In this document: positions 9,984 through 21,634 of the stretch, in pieces | Layout of the letters: each line of letters starts with the position of its first letter | How positions within the stretch are numbered: the stretch's first letter is position 1 | From: Symmachiella dynata | GTDB lineage: Bacteria > Planctomycetota > Planctomycetia > Planctomycetales > Planctomycetaceae | DNA: 64,000 nt | NCBI RefSeq assembly: GCF_007747995.1 | Contig: NZ_CP036276.1 | Coordinates: 7,058,001 to 7,122,000, forward strand | Direction of reading: 5' to 3' | Notes under the pieces: generated by a model | Seen by the model: the letters and a program-made list of their open reading frames with translations, nothing else | What the model was told of the DNA's origin: nothing | The model's database searches: none | Translations under genes and position numbers: made by a program

Positions 9984-11423
9984 ATGCCGAACATCACCTG
10001 CCCCCAATGCCGTGCCGAGATTGATGACGATTTGTGGGAAAGCACGGGACGGGCCGAATGTCCGTTTTGCGGGGCAGACATGCCGGAATTGGCAACCGCT
10101 GCTCCTATTGAAAACAGCGTCTCCGGTGCAGAAGCTGGGCGGATTTCTCTGCCGCCGTTGCCGTCAAAAAGTGTGATTCAAATCATCGAAGCCTCGCCCG
10201 ACCGCCGCGTGTTTTACATACCTGGCGGCCGAGCGGGGGGCATCGGTTTTTTTGCGTTGGTCTGGAACGGCTTTATGGCGGTGTTTACGACGGTGATGAT
10301 ATCGTCGGGGCTGGGTGACAAACCGGGTGACATGCCCCCGCTAGGTCTTGCCGCCTTTCTCAGTCTGTTTTGGATCATCGGACTTGGCCTTGCGTATTGG
10401 TGGGTCAAAGCCAGATTCCAAAGACTGTTCGTGATGCTCGATCCGGGACGGATCGTAATCCAACGCGTTTTATTTGGCCGCAAGCGGGTCGATGAAACGG
10501 AGCTAAAGAAGACCTCGCGGGCCGAATTGATTGAGGCTTACCGACAAAACAACCGTCCGGTGTATCGCATCGAAATCGTCGGCGATAACCGCACAGCTAA
10601 GTTTGGCACATCGTTGGAACGGGAGGAGAAGAACTGGTTCGTCGACCGCATCAACGAGTTTTTGCACCCTGCTGGGACACCGCCGACCGGTGCTGCCAAA
10701 TTCTGTTCTCAATGCGGTGAAGGTCTCCAGGAGGCCCAACCCGATCCCGTGACCGGAGCGGTGACTTGTTCTGCTTGCGGCACCATGGTTTCCAGCGCGA
10801 ACATCGACGCTGAAGGGGAAATGACCGAGGCCAAAGAGAATGCGGAGATCGACACAGCCGAACTTGTTCAACCAACCGACGTGATCATCGATGAACAACG
10901 CGGAGATCATTTAAAGTTTCATCTCCCGATTTGTTCGCACGCAACGCTGTCCTGGATCGTGGCCGGCATGGCGTTTTTGTTTGGTGGTATTTTTCTGGCA
11001 ACCAGCTTGGCGAATTTGGTCAATTTTGAAAAATTCGATCTGATAAGAACGTTGTTCCTCATTCCGTTTGTGATGGGCGGACTGGTGCCGATCAGCGTGG
11101 GCCTCTTCGCACTGCGTGGCCGCATTACGGCCGATATTACATCGCAGCGGATCAAAGTCCGCTATCATTTGGGGCTAATCGGAAAATCCAAAGAGATGGC
11201 GACCGACCAAATCACCGAAGTGAAACTCATGACCGGCGCGCCCTCCGATTCCCGCATCCAGAACAAATCAGGCCGGTCGCACAGCAATAACATCGCTGCC
11301 AGCGTCGTCAAATCAGCCGACCACATGATCCCGCTCACCCTGATCCACGACAAACCAACCGCCCGCTACGTCACGCAACTGGTACGACGCCAATTGCGAG
11401 AAATGGGTGTCGAGTTCCCGTAG
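9984..11423 (+). CDS. double-module zinc-ribbon / membrane / PH-like protein, unknown function
   Basis: Membrane protein of 479 residues, not recognised as a named family. It appears to be two copies of one module. Module 1 has a zinc ribbon (CPQC at residue 6, CPFC at about 27), two membrane segments (about 82-105 and 117-140), a beta-rich soluble part and a helix ending ENWFVDRINEFL-like. Module 2 has another ribbon (CSQC at about 237, CSAC at about 258), two membrane segments (about 313-335 and 350-372), a beta-rich region starting GRITADITSQRIKVRYHLG and a closing helix ARYVTQLVRRQLREMG. That last helix is nearly identical to the C-terminus of the four proteins encoded at 12046-14769, so all are related. 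The beta-rich parts look like bacterial PH domains (inference). Confidence 0.75.
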   Translation: MPNITCPQCRAEIDDDLWESTGRAECPFCGADMPELATAAPIENSVSGAEAGRISLPPLPSKSVIQIIEASPDRRVFYIPGGRAGGIGFFALVWNGFMAVFTTVMISSGLGDKPGDMPPLGLAAFLSLFWIIGLGLAYWWVKARFQRLFVMLDPGRIVIQRVLFGRKRVDETELKKTSRAELIEAYRQNNRPVYRIEIVGDNRTAKFGTSLEREEKNWFVDRINEFLHPAGTPPTGAAKFCSQCGEGLQEAQPDPVTGAVTCSACGTMVSSANIDAEGEMTEAKENAEIDTAELVQPTDVIIDEQRGDHLKFHLPICSHATLSWIVAGMAFLFGGIFLATSLANLVNFEKFDLIRTLFLIPFVMGGLVPISVGLFALRGRITADITSQRIKVRYHLGLIGKSKEMATDQITEVKLMTGAPSDSRIQNKSGRSHSNNIAASVVKSADHMIPLTLIHDKPTARYVTQLVRRQLREMGVEFP

Positions 11424-11449: not shown

Positions 11450-11832
11450 GTTGTGCGCGGGTCTCCGACCCCGCACTCGCCCGACCGCAGGTCTCCCGCA
11501 GAACGTGGATTCGAAACCGCCGTTGTTAGTAAAAAAGCCTCACGCAAAGCCGCAAAGCTCGCAAAGAGATTTGCGATGTTGATGTGGTTAGCATCGGTTT
11601 GCGTAGATCGCGCCGTACCTGCCCAAGCAATTTGCTTACAAAAATGCTACCCACACCACACAGCCTCCCTTTCTGAATCCGTTTCTCCTGGTCACTCCAT
11701 TGCGGTCTTTGCGACTTAGCGTGAGTCTTTTTGTCTGCGTTATGGAGTTTGACGGCTAAAGCCTCAGCAGCGAGAACCCCCGTAGAACGGGGGTCGATTC
11801 GGCGGGTTATCTCCCCCCACCCCGCCGTAAAC
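11450..11832 (+). repeat. 383-bp MITE-like dispersed element, copy A
   Basis: This is closely similar to 41174-41556, with the same length. It starts with the GTTGTGCGCGGGTCTCC hairpin head, contains an arm CTCACGCAAAGCCGCAAAG (11539-11557) and its imperfect complement (11707-11725), and ends with CCCGCCGTAAAC. No ORF within it resembles a transposase. Confidence 0.85.
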
Positions 11833-12045: not shown

Positions 12046-12735
12046 ATGCGAACGATTCCCTATATGTGCTTGGCGTGCGGTGAGATCGTCGACGTAGCGG
12101 TTCCCATCGGTGAAACGGGACCGGGCCGTTGTCCGATGTGTGGTGGGGAGTTGACGTGCGATTTTGATTTGCCGGTCAATGAGCACGTCCGGGTTGAGGT
12201 TCAGACGCCGGAGCGATTGCGGTTGTGTTATCCTTGCGTCATCCCGGCACCAGGGCTATTTCAAAAAATAGCGTGGTTTCAATTTTCACTATCGCCGATT
12301 GTTATCATTTGGATGATGGTACAGTCGTGTTCGCAAAGACCATCCATTTTCGGCTTTGTACTATGTCTAGGTGTTGTTGCTTATTTCGTGATGTGTTCGG
12401 TCATATGTCTGTATATCGGGCTTCTTATTGCGTTCGGTCGCACGACACTCGATTTCGATAGAAAATGCTTGGATATTAAAATGCGCTTATGGGGATATTG
12501 TCGAACACGGACAGTAAAACTCAATAAAATTCAAAGCATTTATTCGTTCAGAAGCATTTGTACGGTTCAAGAAATGAACCATGACTCGCGAAATCGAATG
12601 ATTCTGTGGGGACGTAAAAAAACTTATCGATATTTGTCGATTAAAGGAGGGACTGATTTCGACTCGGCCCGCTACGTTACCCACCTGATTCGCCGACAAC
12701 TGATCACCATGGGGCACGAACTACAGGATGGCTAA
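12046..12735 (+). CDS. zinc-ribbon membrane protein, array member 1 (type A)
   Basis: First of four tandem paralogues (229 residues, function unknown). Cys8, Cys11, Cys29 and Cys32 form an N-terminal zinc ribbon. A conserved linker PERLRL follows, then two membrane segments (about 85-105 and 108-135), a beta-rich PH-like segment starting RTTLDFDRKCLDIKM, and a C-terminal helix SARYVTHLIRRQLITMG ending LQDG. I start at ATG 12046, not 12031, because MRTIPYMCLACGEIVDV then aligns residue for residue with the MxxxFPIxCxxC start of the other copies. Its last 8 bases overlap the next gene. The core is closest to array member 3 and is AT-rich compared with its ends. Confidence 0.75.
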   Translation: MRTIPYMCLACGEIVDVAVPIGETGPGRCPMCGGELTCDFDLPVNEHVRVEVQTPERLRLCYPCVIPAPGLFQKIAWFQFSLSPIVIIWMMVQSCSQRPSIFGFVLCLGVVAYFVMCSVICLYIGLLIAFGRTTLDFDRKCLDIKMRLWGYCRTRTVKLNKIQSIYSFRSICTVQEMNHDSRNRMILWGRKKTYRYLSIKGGTDFDSARYVTHLIRRQLITMGHELQDG

Positions 12736-13414
12736 GACCTTTCCTATTCAATGTCATAGCTGCACGGAAATCCTGGACGTTGCTGCGGACATGGACGTAA
12801 CCGCCCACTACGATTGTCCGATGTGCGGTGCGGCTATCGAGATCGCCGAGGCGGAAGACTTCGACCTGCCTTGCCCGGCTGCGGTGGTCATCGAGGAACA
12901 GACGCCTGAGCGTTTGCGGCTGCGCGTGGTCGAAAGTCCCCGGGGAAGCGATGGTTACTATTTAGCGCTCTTATTTATGGGCATCGGACTCGTTTTAATA
13001 GGCTATGTCGTATTGGTACTGAGTATTGATTTTGATTATCCATTTCCATTGATTCACAACAACATAATTGATCAATTATTCTACGGGATAATCTCGCTGG
13101 GAGGAGGTACCCTTCAATTGACTGCAGCTAGATCACTAGAATTGGCAGGTGAAAATGTCACCATTCGATATTATGTTTTTGGGCTGGATTTTTTCCGAAG
13201 GAGGACGCGTTCGACCTTAATCGATAGCGTCTACACTGTGCCCCCTCACGCTAATTTTAAGCCTCTTCGTGTCTGGCAAGTTATCCTCGCGGTTGGATCA
13301 AAATTTCATACACGACGTTCGATTCTCACCCCAAATCCCGACCTAGCCCGCTACGTTACCCACCTCCTCCGCCGACATCTGATCACCATAGGACACGAAC
13401 TACAGGATGGCTGA
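12728..13414 (+). CDS. zinc-ribbon membrane protein, array member 2 (type B)
   Basis: This paralogue (228 residues) has a zinc ribbon at Cys9, Cys12, Cys30 and Cys33, then EEQTPERLRLRV and SPRGSDGYYLALL, two membrane segments (about 78-100 and 110-135), the motif ARSLELAGENVTIRYYVFG opening a PH-like beta region, RRRTRSTLIDSVYTV, and the common helix ARYVTHLLRRHLITIG-HELQDG. It overlaps both neighbours by 8 bases. Its core closely matches member 4 (SPRGSD, ARSLELAG, RTRS-LI-SV) and not members 1 or 3. Unknown function; it is expected to sit in the cytoplasmic membrane with the ribbon inside the cell. Confidence 0.75.
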   Translation: MAKTFPIQCHSCTEILDVAADMDVTAHYDCPMCGAAIEIAEAEDFDLPCPAAVVIEEQTPERLRLRVVESPRGSDGYYLALLFMGIGLVLIGYVVLVLSIDFDYPFPLIHNNIIDQLFYGIISLGGGTLQLTAARSLELAGENVTIRYYVFGLDFFRRRTRSTLIDSVYTVPPHANFKPLRVWQVILAVGSKFHTRRSILTPNPDLARYVTHLLRRHLITIGHELQDG

Positions 13415-14093
13415 GACTTTTCCAATCAAATGTGGTAGCTGCACAGAAATTATCGACGTCGCTGCGGACAGTGACCCGGTCGCCGCCTACAATTGTCCGA
13501 TGTGTGGCGCGGCTATCGTGATCGCCGAGGCGGTAGACTTTGAACTGCCTTGCCCGGCGGAGGTGGTGGTTGAGGAGCAAACGCCTGAGCGTTTGCGGTT
13601 TCGGCTGCGGTCAAGTTTACGAGGGTCGAATAGTCATGCGTTTGCAATGACAGTTTGTGTGGGATTCCCAATTCTTGATCTGTTATCGGAAATTGGAATC
13701 GCTTGGGTGCGTTCCGGCCATCTTCCGGGGGTGTTCCAATTATTGACCCAAGCCGCGATTTGCACTCTCATCGCGTTTTTTCTGGCGTCTTTTATTCTTT
13801 TTGGATCGACGACCATCGAATTGTCACACGGGGAGTGCTTCGTGCGAGAGCGAGGATTCTTCCTTCCGGTTAAGTGGCAATGTCCTATCGGCGACATGAC
13901 ATTCGTGAGAATGCGAAGCAAGCGATCTCGGCTATGGCCATTTCGCATTTTTGTATACTGCACCGATGTCACAATACGATGGCGGGGCAGCTACCAATGG
14001 GCAGAATCACCAAATCCCCGCATCGCTCGCTACGTCACCCACCTCCTCCGCCGACAACTGATCACCATGGGACATAACCTGCACAATGGATGA
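13407..14093 (+). CDS. zinc-ribbon membrane protein, array member 3 (type A)
   Basis: This paralogue (228 residues) has a zinc ribbon at Cys9, Cys12, Cys30 and Cys33. The N-terminal 65 residues are almost the same as member 2, but after PERLRFRL the sequence changes. It has two membrane segments (about 75-92 and 108-132), FGSTTIELSHGECFVRERG as the PH-like opening (compare FGRTTLDF in member 1), and the shared ending ARYVTHLLRRQLITMGHNLHNG. It overlaps the previous and next genes by 8 bases each. The mix of a conserved head and tail with a divergent middle suggests recombination or gene conversion among array members. Function unknown. Confidence 0.75.
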   Translation: MAETFPIKCGSCTEIIDVAADSDPVAAYNCPMCGAAIVIAEAVDFELPCPAEVVVEEQTPERLRFRLRSSLRGSNSHAFAMTVCVGFPILDLLSEIGIAWVRSGHLPGVFQLLTQAAICTLIAFFLASFILFGSTTIELSHGECFVRERGFFLPVKWQCPIGDMTFVRMRSKRSRLWPFRIFVYCTDVTIRWRGSYQWAESPNPRIARYVTHLLRRQLITMGHNLHNG

Positions 14094-14769
14094 GATCTTT
14101 CCCATTCAATGTCGTACCTGTGCGGAGATTATAGATGTCGTTGCGAATATTGACGTAGTCGCGCCTTACGAATGCCCTTTGTGCGGCGCGGACATCGCGA
14201 TTAGCGAGGCGGAGGATTTCGATCTGCCTTGTCCGGCGGAGGTGGTGATTGAGGAACAGAGTGATAATTTCTTGAGATTTCGGGTGGCAGATAGTCCCAG
14301 AGGTAGCGACAGCTTCTATTTGGGACGTTTGTTTTTTGTCATCGGTCTCGTTTTTTTAGGGTGTGTTGTATTGATGCACTTTATCGACTTCGATTTTTGG
14401 CCTCGATATTTTGACGATCCCCTTTTTGTTTTAATGTACGGATTAGGCTTTCTGGGCACGGGTGTCCTTCAAATGACGCAAGCAAGATCGCTAGAATTGG
14501 CGGGGAATCATCTGACCGCTCGATATCATGTTCTTGGGGTGACTTATTTTCAAAAGAGGACTCGTTCGGGCCTAATCAACAGCGTACACGTGGTAATACC
14601 TGCAATAACTATTTGGCCAGTTCGTATTTGGCAAGTTGTCATTGCCGATCGCCCTAAAACACATGGACGTTTTTTAATTTTCACGTACAACCGAGACGCT
14701 GCACGCTACATTACCCACACCATCCGCCGACAATTAAAAACCATGGGACACGAACTGCAGGATGGATGA
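14086..14769 (+). CDS. zinc-ribbon membrane protein, array member 4 (type B)
   Basis: This paralogue (227 residues) has Cys9, Cys12, Cys30 and Cys33, then SPRGSDSFYLGRLFFVIG leading into the first membrane segment and MYGLGFLGTGVLQMTQ in the second. ARSLELAGNHLTARYHVLG, KRTRSGLINSVHVV and a WP-VRIWQVV strand follow, and then the closing helix ARYITHTIRRQLKTMG-HELQDG. It is type B, matching member 2 along its whole length. It overlaps the MATE transporter gene by 8 bases at a junction of the same design as those between array members, so the transporter is translationally tied to the array. Confidence 0.75.
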   Translation: MDEIFPIQCRTCAEIIDVVANIDVVAPYECPLCGADIAISEAEDFDLPCPAEVVIEEQSDNFLRFRVADSPRGSDSFYLGRLFFVIGLVFLGCVVLMHFIDFDFWPRYFDDPLFVLMYGLGFLGTGVLQMTQARSLELAGNHLTARYHVLGVTYFQKRTRSGLINSVHVVIPAITIWPVRIWQVVIADRPKTHGRFLIFTYNRDAARYITHTIRRQLKTMGHELQDG

Positions 14770-16141
14770 ACCCAAGGGGGAACGTGAGCGGAGTCCCGTT
14801 TTGACGGGGCCGGTGGGTAGAGCGGTGATGGTGCTGGCGCTGCCGGTGCTGGTTGAGCAGTTGCTTAGTTTCAGCGTGGGGATGGTTGATACCTATCTCG
14901 CCAGTATGAGCACCAATGCCACCACGGCGGTCGGGTCGGCGGCTTATGTAGGGTGGTTGGCGTCGTTGATCATTTCGTTTGTGGGCACCGGTACCACGGC
15001 GCTGGTTGCGCGGCATTGGGGGGCGGGTGAACACGACGCGGCCAATCGCATTGCCAACCGCTCGATGGCCATGGCGGCCTGCATGGGACTGTTGGTCTTC
15101 GTGTTTGTTTTTTTTGCGGCACCGGCGTTTGCAATGCTGCAACAGATGGAGGGCGAGACCTATGACATCGTGGTCCGCTACCTACGGCTTGACGGTCTGG
15201 GGTTGATCTTTGCCAGCATCACGCTGGTCGGCTCCGCTGCACTCCGCGGGGCGGGTAATATGCGGACACCGATGAAAATTCTGGGCATCGTGAATGTGCT
15301 GAACGTTATTGTCTCGGCCACATTGGTTTACGGCCTCGGTCCGATTCCAACGCTGGGCGTCGATGGCATTGTGATCGGAACGGTCGTGGCCCGCACAAGC
15401 GGGGGCTTGTTGATGATCTGGGTGTTGTTTCGCGGCAACAGCGGGTTACAACTGCACCGCCACGAAATTCACCTCAAAGGCTTGGAAGTCACCCGCATCA
15501 TGCGGATCGGTCTGCCGGCTGCCTCGGAGGGGATCATCATGTGGGCGGGAAATCTGTTGTTCCTGATGATCATTTCACGGCTCAGCCTCGAAGGATTTAG
15601 CAAACCATTTTATGCGGCGCATATCATTGGTATTCGCGTCGAGGCGCTCACGTATCTGCCGGCGGTTGCTTGGGGACATGCGGCAGCAACGATGATCGGA
15701 CAGGCACTCGGCGCGGGTGATGCCCAGCGCGCGCGACGAGCGGGGCAAATGGCGGTCCTGCAATGCAGTCTGCTGGCAGCCGGGTTGATGGCGTTTTACT
15801 ACTTCGGGGCGGAGTGGATTTATACGTTGATGACCAAAGATGTCGCCGTCCGCGCCATCGGCATACCCGCATTTCAGTTTATGGCGCTGTTCCAAGTGCC
15901 GTTGGTATTGTCGATCGTCTACGTCTTGGCGCTGCACGGCGCAGGGGAGACGCGGTATCCGTTGATCTTTACAATCATCGGCGTGCTGTTCATCCGCGTG
16001 CCGCTGGGGTATTTGTGCGGCATCGTCCTGCACGGGGGACTGATCGGTGCCTGGGTCGGCATGAATGTCGACGTCACCATCCGCGCGATTCTGTTGTTCA
16101 TCCGCTTCCGCTGGGGCGATTGGCAAGGCACTCGTGTGTAA
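14762..16141 (+). CDS. MATE family efflux transporter
   Basis: Multidrug and toxic compound extrusion antiporter (459 residues, about 12 membrane helices) that exports organic cations or metabolites with Na+ or H+. The first lobe begins GRAVMVLALPVLVEQLLSFSVGMVDTYLAS and the second begins IMRIGLPAASEGIIMWAGN; both are the MatE-domain openings. The lobes end with GMNVDVTIRAILLF-type helices. Its ATG lies 8 bases inside the last zinc-ribbon paralogue, with CTGCAGG just ahead, so expression depends on the array. Substrate is unknown. The link with four membrane-bound ribbon proteins is not a standard MATE context. Confidence 0.92.
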   Translation: MDEPKGERERSPVLTGPVGRAVMVLALPVLVEQLLSFSVGMVDTYLASMSTNATTAVGSAAYVGWLASLIISFVGTGTTALVARHWGAGEHDAANRIANRSMAMAACMGLLVFVFVFFAAPAFAMLQQMEGETYDIVVRYLRLDGLGLIFASITLVGSAALRGAGNMRTPMKILGIVNVLNVIVSATLVYGLGPIPTLGVDGIVIGTVVARTSGGLLMIWVLFRGNSGLQLHRHEIHLKGLEVTRIMRIGLPAASEGIIMWAGNLLFLMIISRLSLEGFSKPFYAAHIIGIRVEALTYLPAVAWGHAAATMIGQALGAGDAQRARRAGQMAVLQCSLLAAGLMAFYYFGAEWIYTLMTKDVAVRAIGIPAFQFMALFQVPLVLSIVYVLALHGAGETRYPLIFTIIGVLFIRVPLGYLCGIVLHGGLIGAWVGMNVDVTIRAILLFIRFRWGDWQGTRV

Positions 16142-18424: not shown

Positions 18425-21400
18425 TTACAAATTGAGTTGCTGCGCTGCCAAGTAGTAATAGGTGCCGCGTTTGGCGATCAGTTCGTCGTGCGTTCCCGTT
18501 TCAACGATCGCCCCGTCGTGCAGTACGAGGATTTGGTCGGCGTCGCGGACGGTGGCGATTTTGTGCGCGATGATGAACGAGGTGCGGTCGGCCAAAATCG
18601 CGTCGAGGTTTTTTTGGATCTCGCGTTCGCTCAAACTGTCCAGCGCGCTGGTCGCTTCGTCCATCACCACAATTCGCGGATTGCGATACAAGGCCCGCGC
18701 GATGCTGATCCGCTGACGTTGCCCGCCGGAAAGCGTTAAGCCGAACTCGCCAACGACCATGTCGTAGCCCAGCGGCATCGCGCGGATAAAATCGTGCGCC
18801 CCGGCCAACGTGGCTGCTTCCTCCACTTGCTGCCGGTCTGGGTTGTCATCGCCTAAGGCAATGTTTTCCAGAATCGTGCCGCTGAACAGCAGGTTTTCTT
18901 GCAGCACGAACCCGATCTGCTTTCTCAATGTGCCCAAGTCGATCCGTTCCAGGTTCCAATCATCGATGGTGATCGTCCCTTCGGTCGGTTGATACAGCCC
19001 CAAGAGCAAGCGGGCCAGGGTTGTTTTGCCCGAGCCGCTGCGCCCGACGATGGCGATGCGTTGTCCCGGCGCTGCTTCGAAGGACAGGTTTCGCAATACA
19101 TACGGCGCCCCTTTGGTGCCGTAGTGGAAAAAGACGCGGTCGAATTTGACGCGACCCCGAATGACTTTGGGATAGACGCGTTCTTCCGGCGGCGGCTGCG
19201 GTTCGGGGTCGTTGTCGAGTACGTCGCTCAACCGCTCCAAGGAGACGCGAGCTTGTTGCAGTTGATCCCACAGTCCGATGACACTCGAGAGCGGTCCGAT
19301 AACTTGTCCGGCCAGCATGTTGAAGGCCATGAAATCGCCCAAAGTCAATTCATTGCGCTGGACCAATGTCAGTCCATACCACAGCAGCGCCACGTTACTG
19401 AACACACCAATGGCGCCGTCGATTGCGCCGAAAGTTTCTCCTAGTTTTTCGCTGCGATACTGCGATTTCAAGTATTTCTCAAACAGGAGCTCCCATTTTT
19501 TCTGCATCGGCTCTTCGACAGCCATGGCTTTGACCATGTCGATCCCACCGATGCTTTCGATGAGGTTGGATTCATGGGCGGCCCCGTCTTCCATCAACCG
19601 GCGATGCATTAACTTCATGATCGGGCTGACGATTAAAGTGAAGGCCACGAAGACGGGGACGAATGCTAAGACCACGGCCGCCAAACGGGCATTGAGCATG
19701 AACATCACCACGAAATAAACAACCACCATCAACGAATCGAGCACAACCGTCATGGTGCCGGCGGTGAATAGCTCGCGCACATTTTCGTTATCGCCAAAGC
19801 GGGCCACGATATCGCCCGTCCGCCGCAGCTTGAAAAACCGCGTGGGTAGCTGCAGCAAATGTTCGTAAAACTCGTGCAACATGGTGCGGTCGAGTTTTTG
19901 GCTCAAGCGGACGGCGACTAGGCCCCGCAACATCGTCATGCCGATCCCAAATACGGAAACTATTACCAACCCCGCTGCCAGCCAATTTAGTGACAGCAGA
20001 CTTCCAGGAGGCGCGGTGCCGTCTGGGGGACCGGCATCGGAGGGCATCAGTACCGAATCGATGATGTATTTCGTGAATAACGGCGCAGCCAGACCAACGA
20101 TTTGCAATAACAATGATATCGCCAGGATCACACCCAGCGTCTTCAAGTTGCTCTTCATTAAGTTGGTTAACCGCCGCGCAGCTTTGGGCTTGGTGCGAAT
20201 TCGCTCCGCGGCTGCCGTGGGAGTCACCTCCAGCGCGAAGCCGCTGAATTGCGTTTCCAGCTCTTCCAGCGTGACCCGGTACTTGCCCATCGCGGGGTCG
20301 GCAATGTACGCATATTTCTCATTCAATGCGTACAGCACCACGTAGTGGTAGCCCTGCCAAAAGAGGACGGCCGGCAATTGCAGTTTCGGCAGCCGATCCG
20401 CGGTGAGCTTCAAACTTCGTGTTTCGTAGCCGACTTCGTGGGCGGCATGGATCAATTGTGTTAGCGACGCCCCCATGGTGCTCACACCGGCCAAGTCGCG
20501 CAACCGGCTGACGCCGACGGGACGTCCGTGATGCGCTGTGATCATGGCCAGCGAGGCGGCTCCGCAATCAACCTCCTCGTGTTGGGGGATATACGGAAAC
20601 TGGTACCGCCGCCAAAATCCGCCCAGGCCTGTTGAGGGCGGAGTCGGGACATGTTCACCGGTCGCAACCTCCTCGTCAGCGGGCATCTCCGTCGCTGTGA
20701 CCGGGACCATCGCTGCGGGCGGGGCGGTTGGTTCGACGATGTCCTCCGATTCGGTGGTGGATGTCGCAGCATTTTCCTTGGCGATCGCTGCATCCCGCAC
20801 CTGAGTGGTCACCGTGTCAAAGTGTTCGGCCGCGTCATCCGCGCGGGTATGTGCGGCGCGCTCTTCGAAGTAGGTCCGTACCTGCGGCACATCGTCCAGC
20901 AGTCGGCAAAAGTCGGCAGCGGCCAACGTTAGCATCGAGACCGGTCCGTCTGATTGAAATGTGAAATAGCTGCCCACCGGCGGCCGCTCGACCAACGCGC
21001 TGCCGCCGAAGGTATCTCCCGACGTCAACGTTGTCTGGACTTCCCCTTCTTTGACGACGTTCACACGGCCCGATTGAATCAAATAGAAATGTTCGGGAAC
21101 TTCCCCAGCGGTGAGGATCGACTCTTCTGCGGGAAAGTCTTGCGATTGAAACTGATCCACCAGTTCTCGCAGTTGCGGCGGTTTGAGTTGCGTGCCGAGT
21201 TGTCCCACCACTTTGACGAAATTCCACAGCTGCAACCGATCCGCATATCGGTCAAAATATTGCCGCAGTTCGCCGTTTTTCTCCAGGAGACTTTGCACAG
21301 CTTCGGCCGGGATGCTGATCAGCGTGCTGTCGGCCGCGGAACGAATTGTGGCGTTGCGCGGCGCGTTGCTGACCAATGACATTTCGCCAAAGTGATCGCC

Positions 21401-21634
21401 GTCGAACAGCGTATTTAAGGGGAGTTCGTCGCCGTTCTCTTCGTGGAGCACACGGACTTTTCCAGAGTAGACGACGTACATCCGGTCGCCCACGTCTCCT
21501 TGCCGAAAAACAACCTGCCCGAGTTTATAGTGCCGGATATCCGCTTGGTCGCGGATGGCGGCCAGTTCTTCGTCGGAGAGTAACGAAAAGCAACTGCAGT
21601 TCCTCAAGCAGGTTTCCAATTGATCGACGTTCAT
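18425..21634 (-). CDS. peptidase C39-ABC exporter with two N-terminal cNMP-binding-like domains
   Basis: Large membrane exporter, 1069 residues. Two CRP-like cyclic-nucleotide-binding domains come first (about 15-135 and 150-250, e.g. GDHFGEMSLVSNAPRNATIR). An acidic/Ala-rich linker follows, then a C39 cysteine peptidase (about 348-480) with DCGAASL (Cys357), a GYHYVVL histidine and IADPAMGK aspartate. Six membrane helices (about 490-790) are followed by an ATPase with GRSGSGKTT (about 863), LSGGQRQR (about 968) and VVMDEATSAL. C39-ABC exporters cut double-glycine leaders and export peptides; the regulatory front end resembles the HetC-type layout of cyanobacteria. Start ATG 21634 has AGGA about 8 bases upstream. 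No HlyD-type adaptor or leader peptide gene was recognised next to it. Confidence 0.93.
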   Translation of the reverse strand: MNVDQLETCLRNCSCFSLLSDEELAAIRDQADIRHYKLGQVVFRQGDVGDRMYVVYSGKVRVLHEENGDELPLNTLFDGDHFGEMSLVSNAPRNATIRSAADSTLISIPAEAVQSLLEKNGELRQYFDRYADRLQLWNFVKVVGQLGTQLKPPQLRELVDQFQSQDFPAEESILTAGEVPEHFYLIQSGRVNVVKEGEVQTTLTSGDTFGGSALVERPPVGSYFTFQSDGPVSMLTLAAADFCRLLDDVPQVRTYFEERAAHTRADDAAEHFDTVTTQVRDAAIAKENAATSTTESEDIVEPTAPPAAMVPVTATEMPADEEVATGEHVPTPPSTGLGGFWRRYQFPYIPQHEEVDCGAASLAMITAHHGRPVGVSRLRDLAGVSTMGASLTQLIHAAHEVGYETRSLKLTADRLPKLQLPAVLFWQGYHYVVLYALNEKYAYIADPAMGKYRVTLEELETQFSGFALEVTPTAAAERIRTKPKAARRLTNLMKSNLKTLGVILAISLLLQIVGLAAPLFTKYIIDSVLMPSDAGPPDGTAPPGSLLSLNWLAAGLVIVSVFGIGMTMLRGLVAVRLSQKLDRTMLHEFYEHLLQLPTRFFKLRRTGDIVARFGDNENVRELFTAGTMTVVLDSLMVVVYFVVMFMLNARLAAVVLAFVPVFVAFTLIVSPIMKLMHRRLMEDGAAHESNLIESIGGIDMVKAMAVEEPMQKKWELLFEKYLKSQYRSEKLGETFGAIDGAIGVFSNVALLWYGLTLVQRNELTLGDFMAFNMLAGQVIGPLSSVIGLWDQLQQARVSLERLSDVLDNDPEPQPPPEERVYPKVIRGRVKFDRVFFHYGTKGAPYVLRNLSFEAAPGQRIAIVGRSGSGKTTLARLLLGLYQPTEGTITIDDWNLERIDLGTLRKQIGFVLQENLLFSGTILENIALGDDNPDRQQVEEAATLAGAHDFIRAMPLGYDMVVGEFGLTLSGGQRQRISIARALYRNPRIVVMDEATSALDSLSEREIQKNLDAILADRTSFIIAHKIATVRDADQILVLHDGAIVETGTHDELIAKRGTYYYLAAQQLNL

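What the first reader, a model, noticed from the sequence alone, without database searches (positions are those of the whole stretch)
12046..16141. Tandem A-B-A-B array of zinc-ribbon membrane proteins feeding into a MATE transporter
Four genes of about 680 bp follow each other with an identical 8-base overlap, and the fourth overlaps a MATE gene in the same way. All have a CxxC...CxxC ribbon, two membrane segments, a beta-rich segment and the closing helix ARYVTHLxRRQL. The cores alternate: members 1 and 3 share FGxTT, members 2 and 4 share SPRGSD and ARSLELAG. This implies duplication of a two-gene unit of about 1,360 bp. It could be a sensing or gating complex for the transporter.
Basis: partly seen in the sequence, partly recalled or inferred. 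Interest (0 to 1): 0.75.

Follow-up and report, generated by a model that had tools for sequence, protein, structure and literature searches.

The report
Swappable-core membrane protein array beside MATE
A planctomycete carries a row of small membrane proteins with near-constant ends and exchangeable middles just before a drug-type transporter gene, which suggests a set of interchangeable partner proteins for that transporter.

Summary
The four genes, their 8-base overlaps and the overlap into the MATE gene are real. A-B-A-B is not: cores 2 and 4 are related (50% identity), cores 1 and 3 no more than chance (10%, z -0.2). The members are single-module relatives of the C-terminal half of a two-module protein encoded just upstream (9984-11423). 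That parent occurs in 44 of 170 genomes of the order and lies directly upstream of the MATE in 18 of those 44; the array was found in 3 of 150 family genomes, all of one genus. A member models as a PH-like domain split by a two-helix membrane hairpin, the topology of EROS/CYBC1, plus a zinc ribbon. The unexpected part is block exchange: between two sister genomes slot 1 keeps its caps (95% and 91%) but not its core (18%), while cores 3 and 4 are more alike at synonymous codons (96%) than any of 202 windows in 8 flanking genes (maximum 86%). Cores 1, 2 and 4 are low-GC outliers. Best reading: constant caps around recombining cores, serving as variable partners of the MATE exporter. The exchange is well supported, though by one genome pair; the function is inferred.

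The parts
9984..11423 (+). two-module parent protein (479 aa): zinc ribbon, split PH-like module, second ribbon, second split PH-like module
   Evidence: (array profile hits its C-half, E 5.4e-12); model of low confidence
11525..11745 (.). part of a dispersed MITE-like repeat between parent gene and array (limits are those of my query)
   Evidence: 58 matches in own genome; no match to the sister locus for about 11498-11815
12046..12735 (+). array member 1 (start may be 12031)
12225..12666 (+). core of member 1; different from the core in the same slot of G066, sharp DNA breakpoints
12728..13414 (+). array member 2
12920..13345 (+). core of member 2, same type as core 4
13407..14093 (+). array member 3
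13599..14024 (+). core of member 3, unusually similar to its counterpart in G066
14086..14769 (+). array member 4 (structure modelled)
14278..14700 (+). core of member 4, unusually similar to its counterpart in G066
12667..12919 (+). junction 1/2: C-cap of member 1, overlap, N-cap of member 2
13346..13598 (+). junction 2/3: C-cap, overlap, N-cap
14025..14277 (+). junction 3/4: C-cap, overlap, N-cap
14762..16141 (+). MATE family transporter (459 aa)

Best explanation
The locus is an operon-like MATE transporter locus with an old partner (the two-module ribbon/PH-like membrane protein) and, in this genus, an inserted array of single-module derivatives of that partner. Each member has caps that change little (N-terminal zinc ribbon plus lead-in strand; C-terminal helix) and a core made of the membrane hairpin and most of the PH-like barrel. 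Cores are replaced in blocks by homologous recombination in the caps, between lineages or between array members, and because the cap-overlap-cap junction stays whole, each replacement leaves reading frame and gene overlap intact. Shown: anatomy, homology to the parent, MATE linkage, a replaced core in slot 1, cores 3 and 4 younger than the flanking genes. Inferred: the route (recombination in the caps); that caps bind a common partner (parent protein or MATE); that cores give each member its own specificity, most likely for a compound or peptide to be exported or resisted, so that the array is a changeable set of adaptors or guards on one exporter.
For: Homology to the parent: array profile hits the C-half of P0005 at E 5.4e-12; the profile of two-module proteins hits member 1 over part of its core and the C-cap at E 4.7e-7. 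Linkage: parent directly upstream of the MATE (under 1 kb, same strand) in 18 of 44 genomes, 5 more at 2-3.8 kb (the 3 genus genomes, G007, G061). Exchange: slot 1 N-cap 95%, core 18%, C-cap 91% with sharp edges; core dS near saturation (1.8) against 0.18 in the N-cap and 0.48 in the C-cap, which selection on amino acids does not give. Cores 3 and 4: codons for the same amino acid identical in 131 of 136 and 133 of 139, against 65 of 81 in the caps of member 3 (p 2e-4) and 375 of 445 in MATE (p 4e-7 for both cores together); 0 of 202 overlapping windows in 8 flanking genes reach 95.7%, maximum 86.3%. Cores 1, 2 and 4 have GC3 of 40-42%, met or undercut in 0, 1 and 0 of 266 overlapping coding windows (core 3, 51%: 12 of 266). 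Mosaic: member 2 has its nearest N-cap in member 3 and its G066 counterpart (78%), nearest core in member 4 and its counterpart (50%), nearest C-cap in member 1 (86%). Fold: model of member 4 (mean pLDDT 80.7), best PDB match EROS 8kei_D, E 1.8e-4; in EROS two membrane helices are inserted between PH strands 2 and 3 (PMC9767466, passages seen). Precedent for export: PH-domain membrane proteins DdE/DdF reported as required for export of a leaderless bacteriocin (PMC8657885, passages seen).
Against: No direct evidence of binding to MATE or of any ligand. The array is known from 3 genomes, one per species, so exchange rests on one close pair (G000/G066); G023 is too diverged to show it and its members do not overlap. 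Only the N-cap of slot 1 is special to that slot; its C-cap is just as similar (91%) to members 2 and 3 of G066, so the new core may come from another, since lost, array member and not from outside. The parent is not linked to the MATE in 17 of 44 genomes (some contigs are short) and 4 of 44 lack that MATE, so it may work without it. No donor for core 1 was found in 170 genomes. On raw mismatches core 3 against its flanking caps is not significant (p 0.06), only at synonymous codons; the N-cap of member 4 is as similar (59 of 61) as its core, so that tract is not confined to the core. The core of member 1 alone against the two-module profile gives E 6.4e-4 but an hhalign probability of only 28%, core 3 alone E 0.061 and probability 1%, so a common fold of all cores is not proven. 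Zinc binding untested; models rest on 13 and 8 sequences and the two-module model is poor (pLDDT 67).
Confidence: 0.45

Rival explanations
1. Assembly factor: parent and array are EROS-like chaperones that fold or stabilise the MATE (or other polytopic proteins); the differing cores match different clients and carry no ligand specificity.
For: Same split-PH topology as EROS, a selective chaperone for gp91phox and P2X7; linkage of parent to MATE. The own genome has MatE matches at three other places, two of them over the cut-off, so there could be several clients.
Against: Only one close copy of this MATE per genome; block exchange of cores is not expected for chaperones of a well conserved client (MATE 97% identical between the two genomes). 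EROS was found by fold, with 12-14% identity.
Confidence: 0.25
2. Mobile immunity or defence genes that only use this locus as a landing place: a variable set of membrane guards against toxins, bacteriocins or phages, independent of the MATE.
For: Low-GC, exchanged cores of narrow distribution, as expected under an arms race.
Against: No PADLOC match for the array members; 8-base overlaps run on into MATE in two genomes, and parent, array and MATE stay together in all 3 genus genomes.
Confidence: 0.2
3. Ordinary tandem paralogs: duplication, then fast drift of a loosely constrained middle between conserved ends, without exchange.
For: Conserved ends and loose middles are common in tandem families (recalled); core pairs 2/4, G66_3/G66_4 and G23_2/G23_3 look like ordinary duplicates.
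Against: Slot 1: synonymous saturation of the core between caps at dS 0.18 and 0.48; cores 3 and 4 are younger than the flanking genes and not loose (96% and 99% identical).
Confidence: 0.07

Closest known systems
EROS / CYBC1 (chaperone of NOX2)
   Same: PH-like domain split by a two-helix membrane hairpin after strand 2; best PDB fold match for both models.
   Different: No zinc ribbon or tandem array mentioned in the passages read; human; 12-14% identity; sequence homology not shown.
DUF2244 (PF10003), proposed PHb-like membrane family
   Same: Two membrane helices followed by a PH-like part; weak match (E up to 0.1) in 8 of 13 two-module proteins, best E 1.3e-4; PMC2817789 suggests DUF2244 belongs to the PHb family (passages seen).
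   Different: P0005 scores 15.2 bits against a cut-off of 27; not listed for array members.
YdbS/YdbT and DdE/DdF (PHb2 membrane proteins)
   Same: Single-module and multi-module membrane partners encoded together; DdE/DdF reported as needed for peptide export (PMC8657885, passages seen).
   Different: No zinc ribbon, MATE or core exchange in the passages read; that domain is not listed for the window proteins.
Module-swapping specificity genes such as HsdS target domains (recalled, not tested)
   Same: Conserved flanks with exchanged specificity blocks.
   Different: Membrane PH-like core instead of a DNA-binding domain; tandem array.

Membership tests
MATE transporters | MatE score over the curated cut-off, two matched stretches | tested here: met
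   PF01554 148.2 bits against 24.9, two stretches; TIGR00797 203 bits against 147
EROS/CYBC1 | split PH fold with inserted two-helix hairpin | tested here: met
   by prediction only: (8kei_D, E 1.8e-4, prob 1.00, TM by target 0.59)
EROS/CYBC1 | sequence relationship | tested here: inconclusive
   no such family listed in the Pfam scan; no profile comparison with EROS was run
DUF2244 (PF10003) | score over Pfam's cut-off | tested here: not met
   15.2 bits against 27 for P0005; not listed for members 1-4
bacterial PHb2 (YdbS/YdbT type) | Pfam match to that domain | tested here: not met
   not listed for the six window proteins at E up to 5 (HMMER filters drop many matches above 0.1)
zinc ribbon proteins | CxxC...CxxC pair | tested here: met
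   13 of 13 array members of three genomes; ribbon family scores are below cut-off
zinc ribbon proteins | bound zinc | not testable with these tools
   needs purified protein
known anti-phage defence systems | match to a PADLOC model | tested here: not met
   none at E up to 0.1 for members 1-4 and MATE; P0005 only LmuB, E 0.012, over its first ribbon

The most novel reading that the evidence does not exclude
A transferable, multi-specificity adaptor array for one exporter: PH-like membrane cores behave as cassettes that lineages swap through conserved zinc-ribbon and helix caps, each core letting the single MATE (or the parent complex) recognise another compound or toxin, a membrane counterpart of target-domain swapping in restriction enzymes.
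Probability: 0.25. Interest if true: 0.85.

Novelty: new variant of a known kind. Interest (0 to 1): 0.62.

Why it matters
MATE exporters are generally regarded as working alone (recalled). An accessory membrane protein linked to one MATE in many genomes of a bacterial order, with a genus that multiplied it and swaps its core in blocks, would give MATE specificity a modular genetic basis and offer a bacterial system with the EROS-type fold; EROS deficiency causes chronic granulomatous disease (abstract start).

Tried and rejected
Rejected: the A-B-A-B duplication. Rejected: plain drift of paralogs. Not found: a second copy of core 1 in the own genome; only its own place matched. The other three cores were not searched apart from their caps (member 3 whole; the four-member profile), so a silent store of those is not excluded. 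Led nowhere: tandem-repeat finder; genome-contig scan with the four members, 75 pattern hits, none a relative; two extra ORFs between parent and MATE in G061 without a significant profile match (E 0.03 and 0.13), so independent insertion there stays open; core of member 3 alone against the two-module profile, E 0.061. NCBIfam was run on members 2-4, parent and MATE, not on member 1. The Pfam and PADLOC runs used member 1 without its first Met (P0001). Literature, judged from listings: no paper holds EROS, Ycf4, pleckstrin homology and chaperone together, none MATE transporter, accessory protein, bacteri and PH domain; planctomycet/zinc ribbon/MATE: 11 papers, 9 listed, none on this by title and abstract start; DUF2244: 2 papers; cassette switching: 8 of 13 listed, planctomycete arrays: 8 of 52 listed, none on this locus. 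The papers used came; those were not used. No claim that the finding is absent from print goes beyond these searches.
Full report
What is there. The window lies in a 7.77 Mb single-contig genome whose relatives are Planctomycetota (record titles). Four ORFs of 227-229 codons follow each other on + (12046-12735, 12728-13414, 13407-14093, 14086-14769), each overlapping the next by 8 bases, the last overlapping a 459-codon MATE gene at 14762-16141. The overlap letters vary. All four carry CxxC...CxxC and the same closing helix.

The A-B-A-B claim. Split into N-cap, core and C-cap, cores 2 and 4 are 50% identical (alignment z 54.5), but cores 1 and 3 are 10% identical with z -0.2. Of the six core pairs in the window only 2/4 is clearly similar; the other five have z from -0.2 to 0.7. 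A duplicated two-gene unit is therefore not supported.

Where the array comes from. The 479-codon ORF upstream, 9984-11423, is a two-module version of the same design; the array profile matches its C-terminal half at E 5.4e-12. With this protein as query, matches (E up to 1e-5) are found in 44 of 170 genomes of the order, 27 of 58 genera; a 13-sequence profile finds matches in 31 of 294 genomes drawn from the phylum, many of them partial. The array profile finds arrays in 3 of 150 genomes drawn from the family, which are the 3 of 3 held for the genus; two more genomes, G079 and G098, matched only through two-module proteins. The remaining 20 genomes of the order were not searched with that profile. 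The array has 4, 5 and 4 members in G000, G066 and G023 and lies between parent and MATE in all three. In G023 the members do not overlap each other.

Linkage to the transporter. A close relative of this MATE (E up to 1e-90; called ortholog here by this threshold, no tree was built) is present once in each of 108 of 170 genomes. It lies directly downstream of the parent protein, within 1 kb on the same strand, in 18 of the 44 genomes that have the parent; in 5 more at 2-3.8 kb (the three genus genomes, G007, G061); 17 are not linked, partly perhaps through short contigs; 4 lack it. 40 of 44 genomes with the parent have this MATE, against 68 of 126 without it (Fisher 7e-6, not corrected for kinship). 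An aminotransferase that looks like HemL by eye lies upstream of the parent in 11 of 30 fetched loci with flanks of up to 1.5 kb. So the partner idea rests mainly on the parent.

Fold. The model of member 4 from 13 sequences has mean pLDDT 80.7: ribbon, two strands, two long helices, six further strands and a closing helix. Its one PDB match under E 0.001 is EROS (8kei_D, E 1.8e-4, probability 1.00), followed by matches of low significance, many of them PH or PTB domains. The model of the two-module protein, poorer at pLDDT 67, gives EROS again at E 7.8e-5. In EROS two membrane helices are inserted between strands 2 and 3 of a PH domain (PMC9767466, passages), the order seen here. By sequence the nearest named membrane family is DUF2244, below cut-off for P0005, itself suggested to be PH-like (PMC2817789, passages).

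Exchange of cores. G066 is a close sister at this locus: MATE 97% and parent 88% identical in protein. In slot 1 the N-cap is special to the slot (39-49% identical to the N-caps of the other window members) and 95% identical between the two genomes; the upstream DNA aligns too; the C-cap is 91% identical, though no more than to two other G066 members; yet the cores are 18% identical, and the DNA similarity ends and resumes within a few bases. Core dS is 1.8 against 0.18 and 0.48 in the caps. Loss of different whole paralogs does not explain a shared slot-specific N-cap, and selection for amino acid change does not saturate synonymous sites; a core was replaced, from another lineage or from another array member. 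Slots 3 and 4 show the reverse: where the amino acid is the same, codons are identical in 131 of 136 and 133 of 139 cases, against 65 of 81 in the caps of member 3 (p 2e-4) and 375 of 445 in MATE. In 202 overlapping windows of 142 codons from eight flanking genes (windows under 70% amino acid identity were left out) the mean is 78.8%, the maximum 86.3%. On raw mismatches core 3 against its caps is not significant (p 0.06), and the N-cap of member 4 is as similar as its core, so that tract is longer than the core. Cores 1, 2 and 4 have GC3 of 40-42%, a level met or undercut in 0, 1 and 0 of 266 overlapping coding windows of the window outside the array (39 longest-ORF proxy genes before the array was left out); core 3 with 51% in 12 of 266. 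Member 2 is a mosaic: nearest N-cap in member 3, nearest core in member 4, nearest C-cap in member 1. The core of member 1 matched nothing in 170 genomes of the order except itself and, weakly (E 0.007), a two-module protein of G098. Against the two-module profile this core alone gives E 6.4e-4 with a probability of 28%, in the right register; core 3 alone gives E 0.061. So the cores are probably, not certainly, one fold.

How it most likely works. Shown: a parent protein tied to a MATE, a genus-specific array of its half, caps that change little and cores replaced in blocks. Inferred: recombination happens in the caps, because the stretch of about 265 bp that runs from one gene's end into the next gene's start is what neighbouring junctions share, and such exchange keeps overlaps and frame. 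Inferred further: caps dock to a shared partner and cores carry specificity. An exporter whose partner set changes suggests export of, or resistance to, changing compounds or peptides; PH-domain membrane proteins are reported as needed to export a leaderless bacteriocin (PMC8657885, passages). The chaperone reading, from EROS, is the main rival.

Limits. One close pair of genomes carries the exchange argument, one genome per species is held, no donor is known, and no function has been tested. Block replacement of cores I hold at about 0.85; the role as variable partners of the MATE at about 0.45.

Noticed in passing
window 11525-11745: Dispersed MITE-like repeat: 58 matches in the own genome, with end segments in both orientations; about 11498-11815 has no match in the sister locus, so it was probably inserted between parent gene and array after the split.
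   Followed up: partly
window 18425-21634 (-): 1069-codon ORF that looks, by eye, like a cyclic-nucleotide-binding, C39-peptidase, ABC exporter fusion; its counterpart lies at the same place in G066, not in the fetched G023 stretch.
   Followed up: no
L079:4461-6412: In G061 two further ORFs (413 and 237 codons, overlapping by 4 bases) lie between parent and MATE, by eye of similar design; profile match not significant. Could be an independent array-like insertion.
   Followed up: partly
L072:449-4227: In G046 two large relatives of the parent (515 and 744 codons) lie in tandem, on another contig than the MATE; G046 has 8 and G098 7 parent-like matches, some being pieces of one gene.
   Followed up: partly
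L067:8001-8783: A MAG named Baikal-deep has a 261-codon ORF with the N-module only, directly before the MATE; either one module is enough there or the gene is broken.
   Followed up: no
G000:C1:4745791-4746378: A second parent-like N-module in the own genome, far from the array; one of two searches reads a TGA inside the longer match.
   Followed up: no
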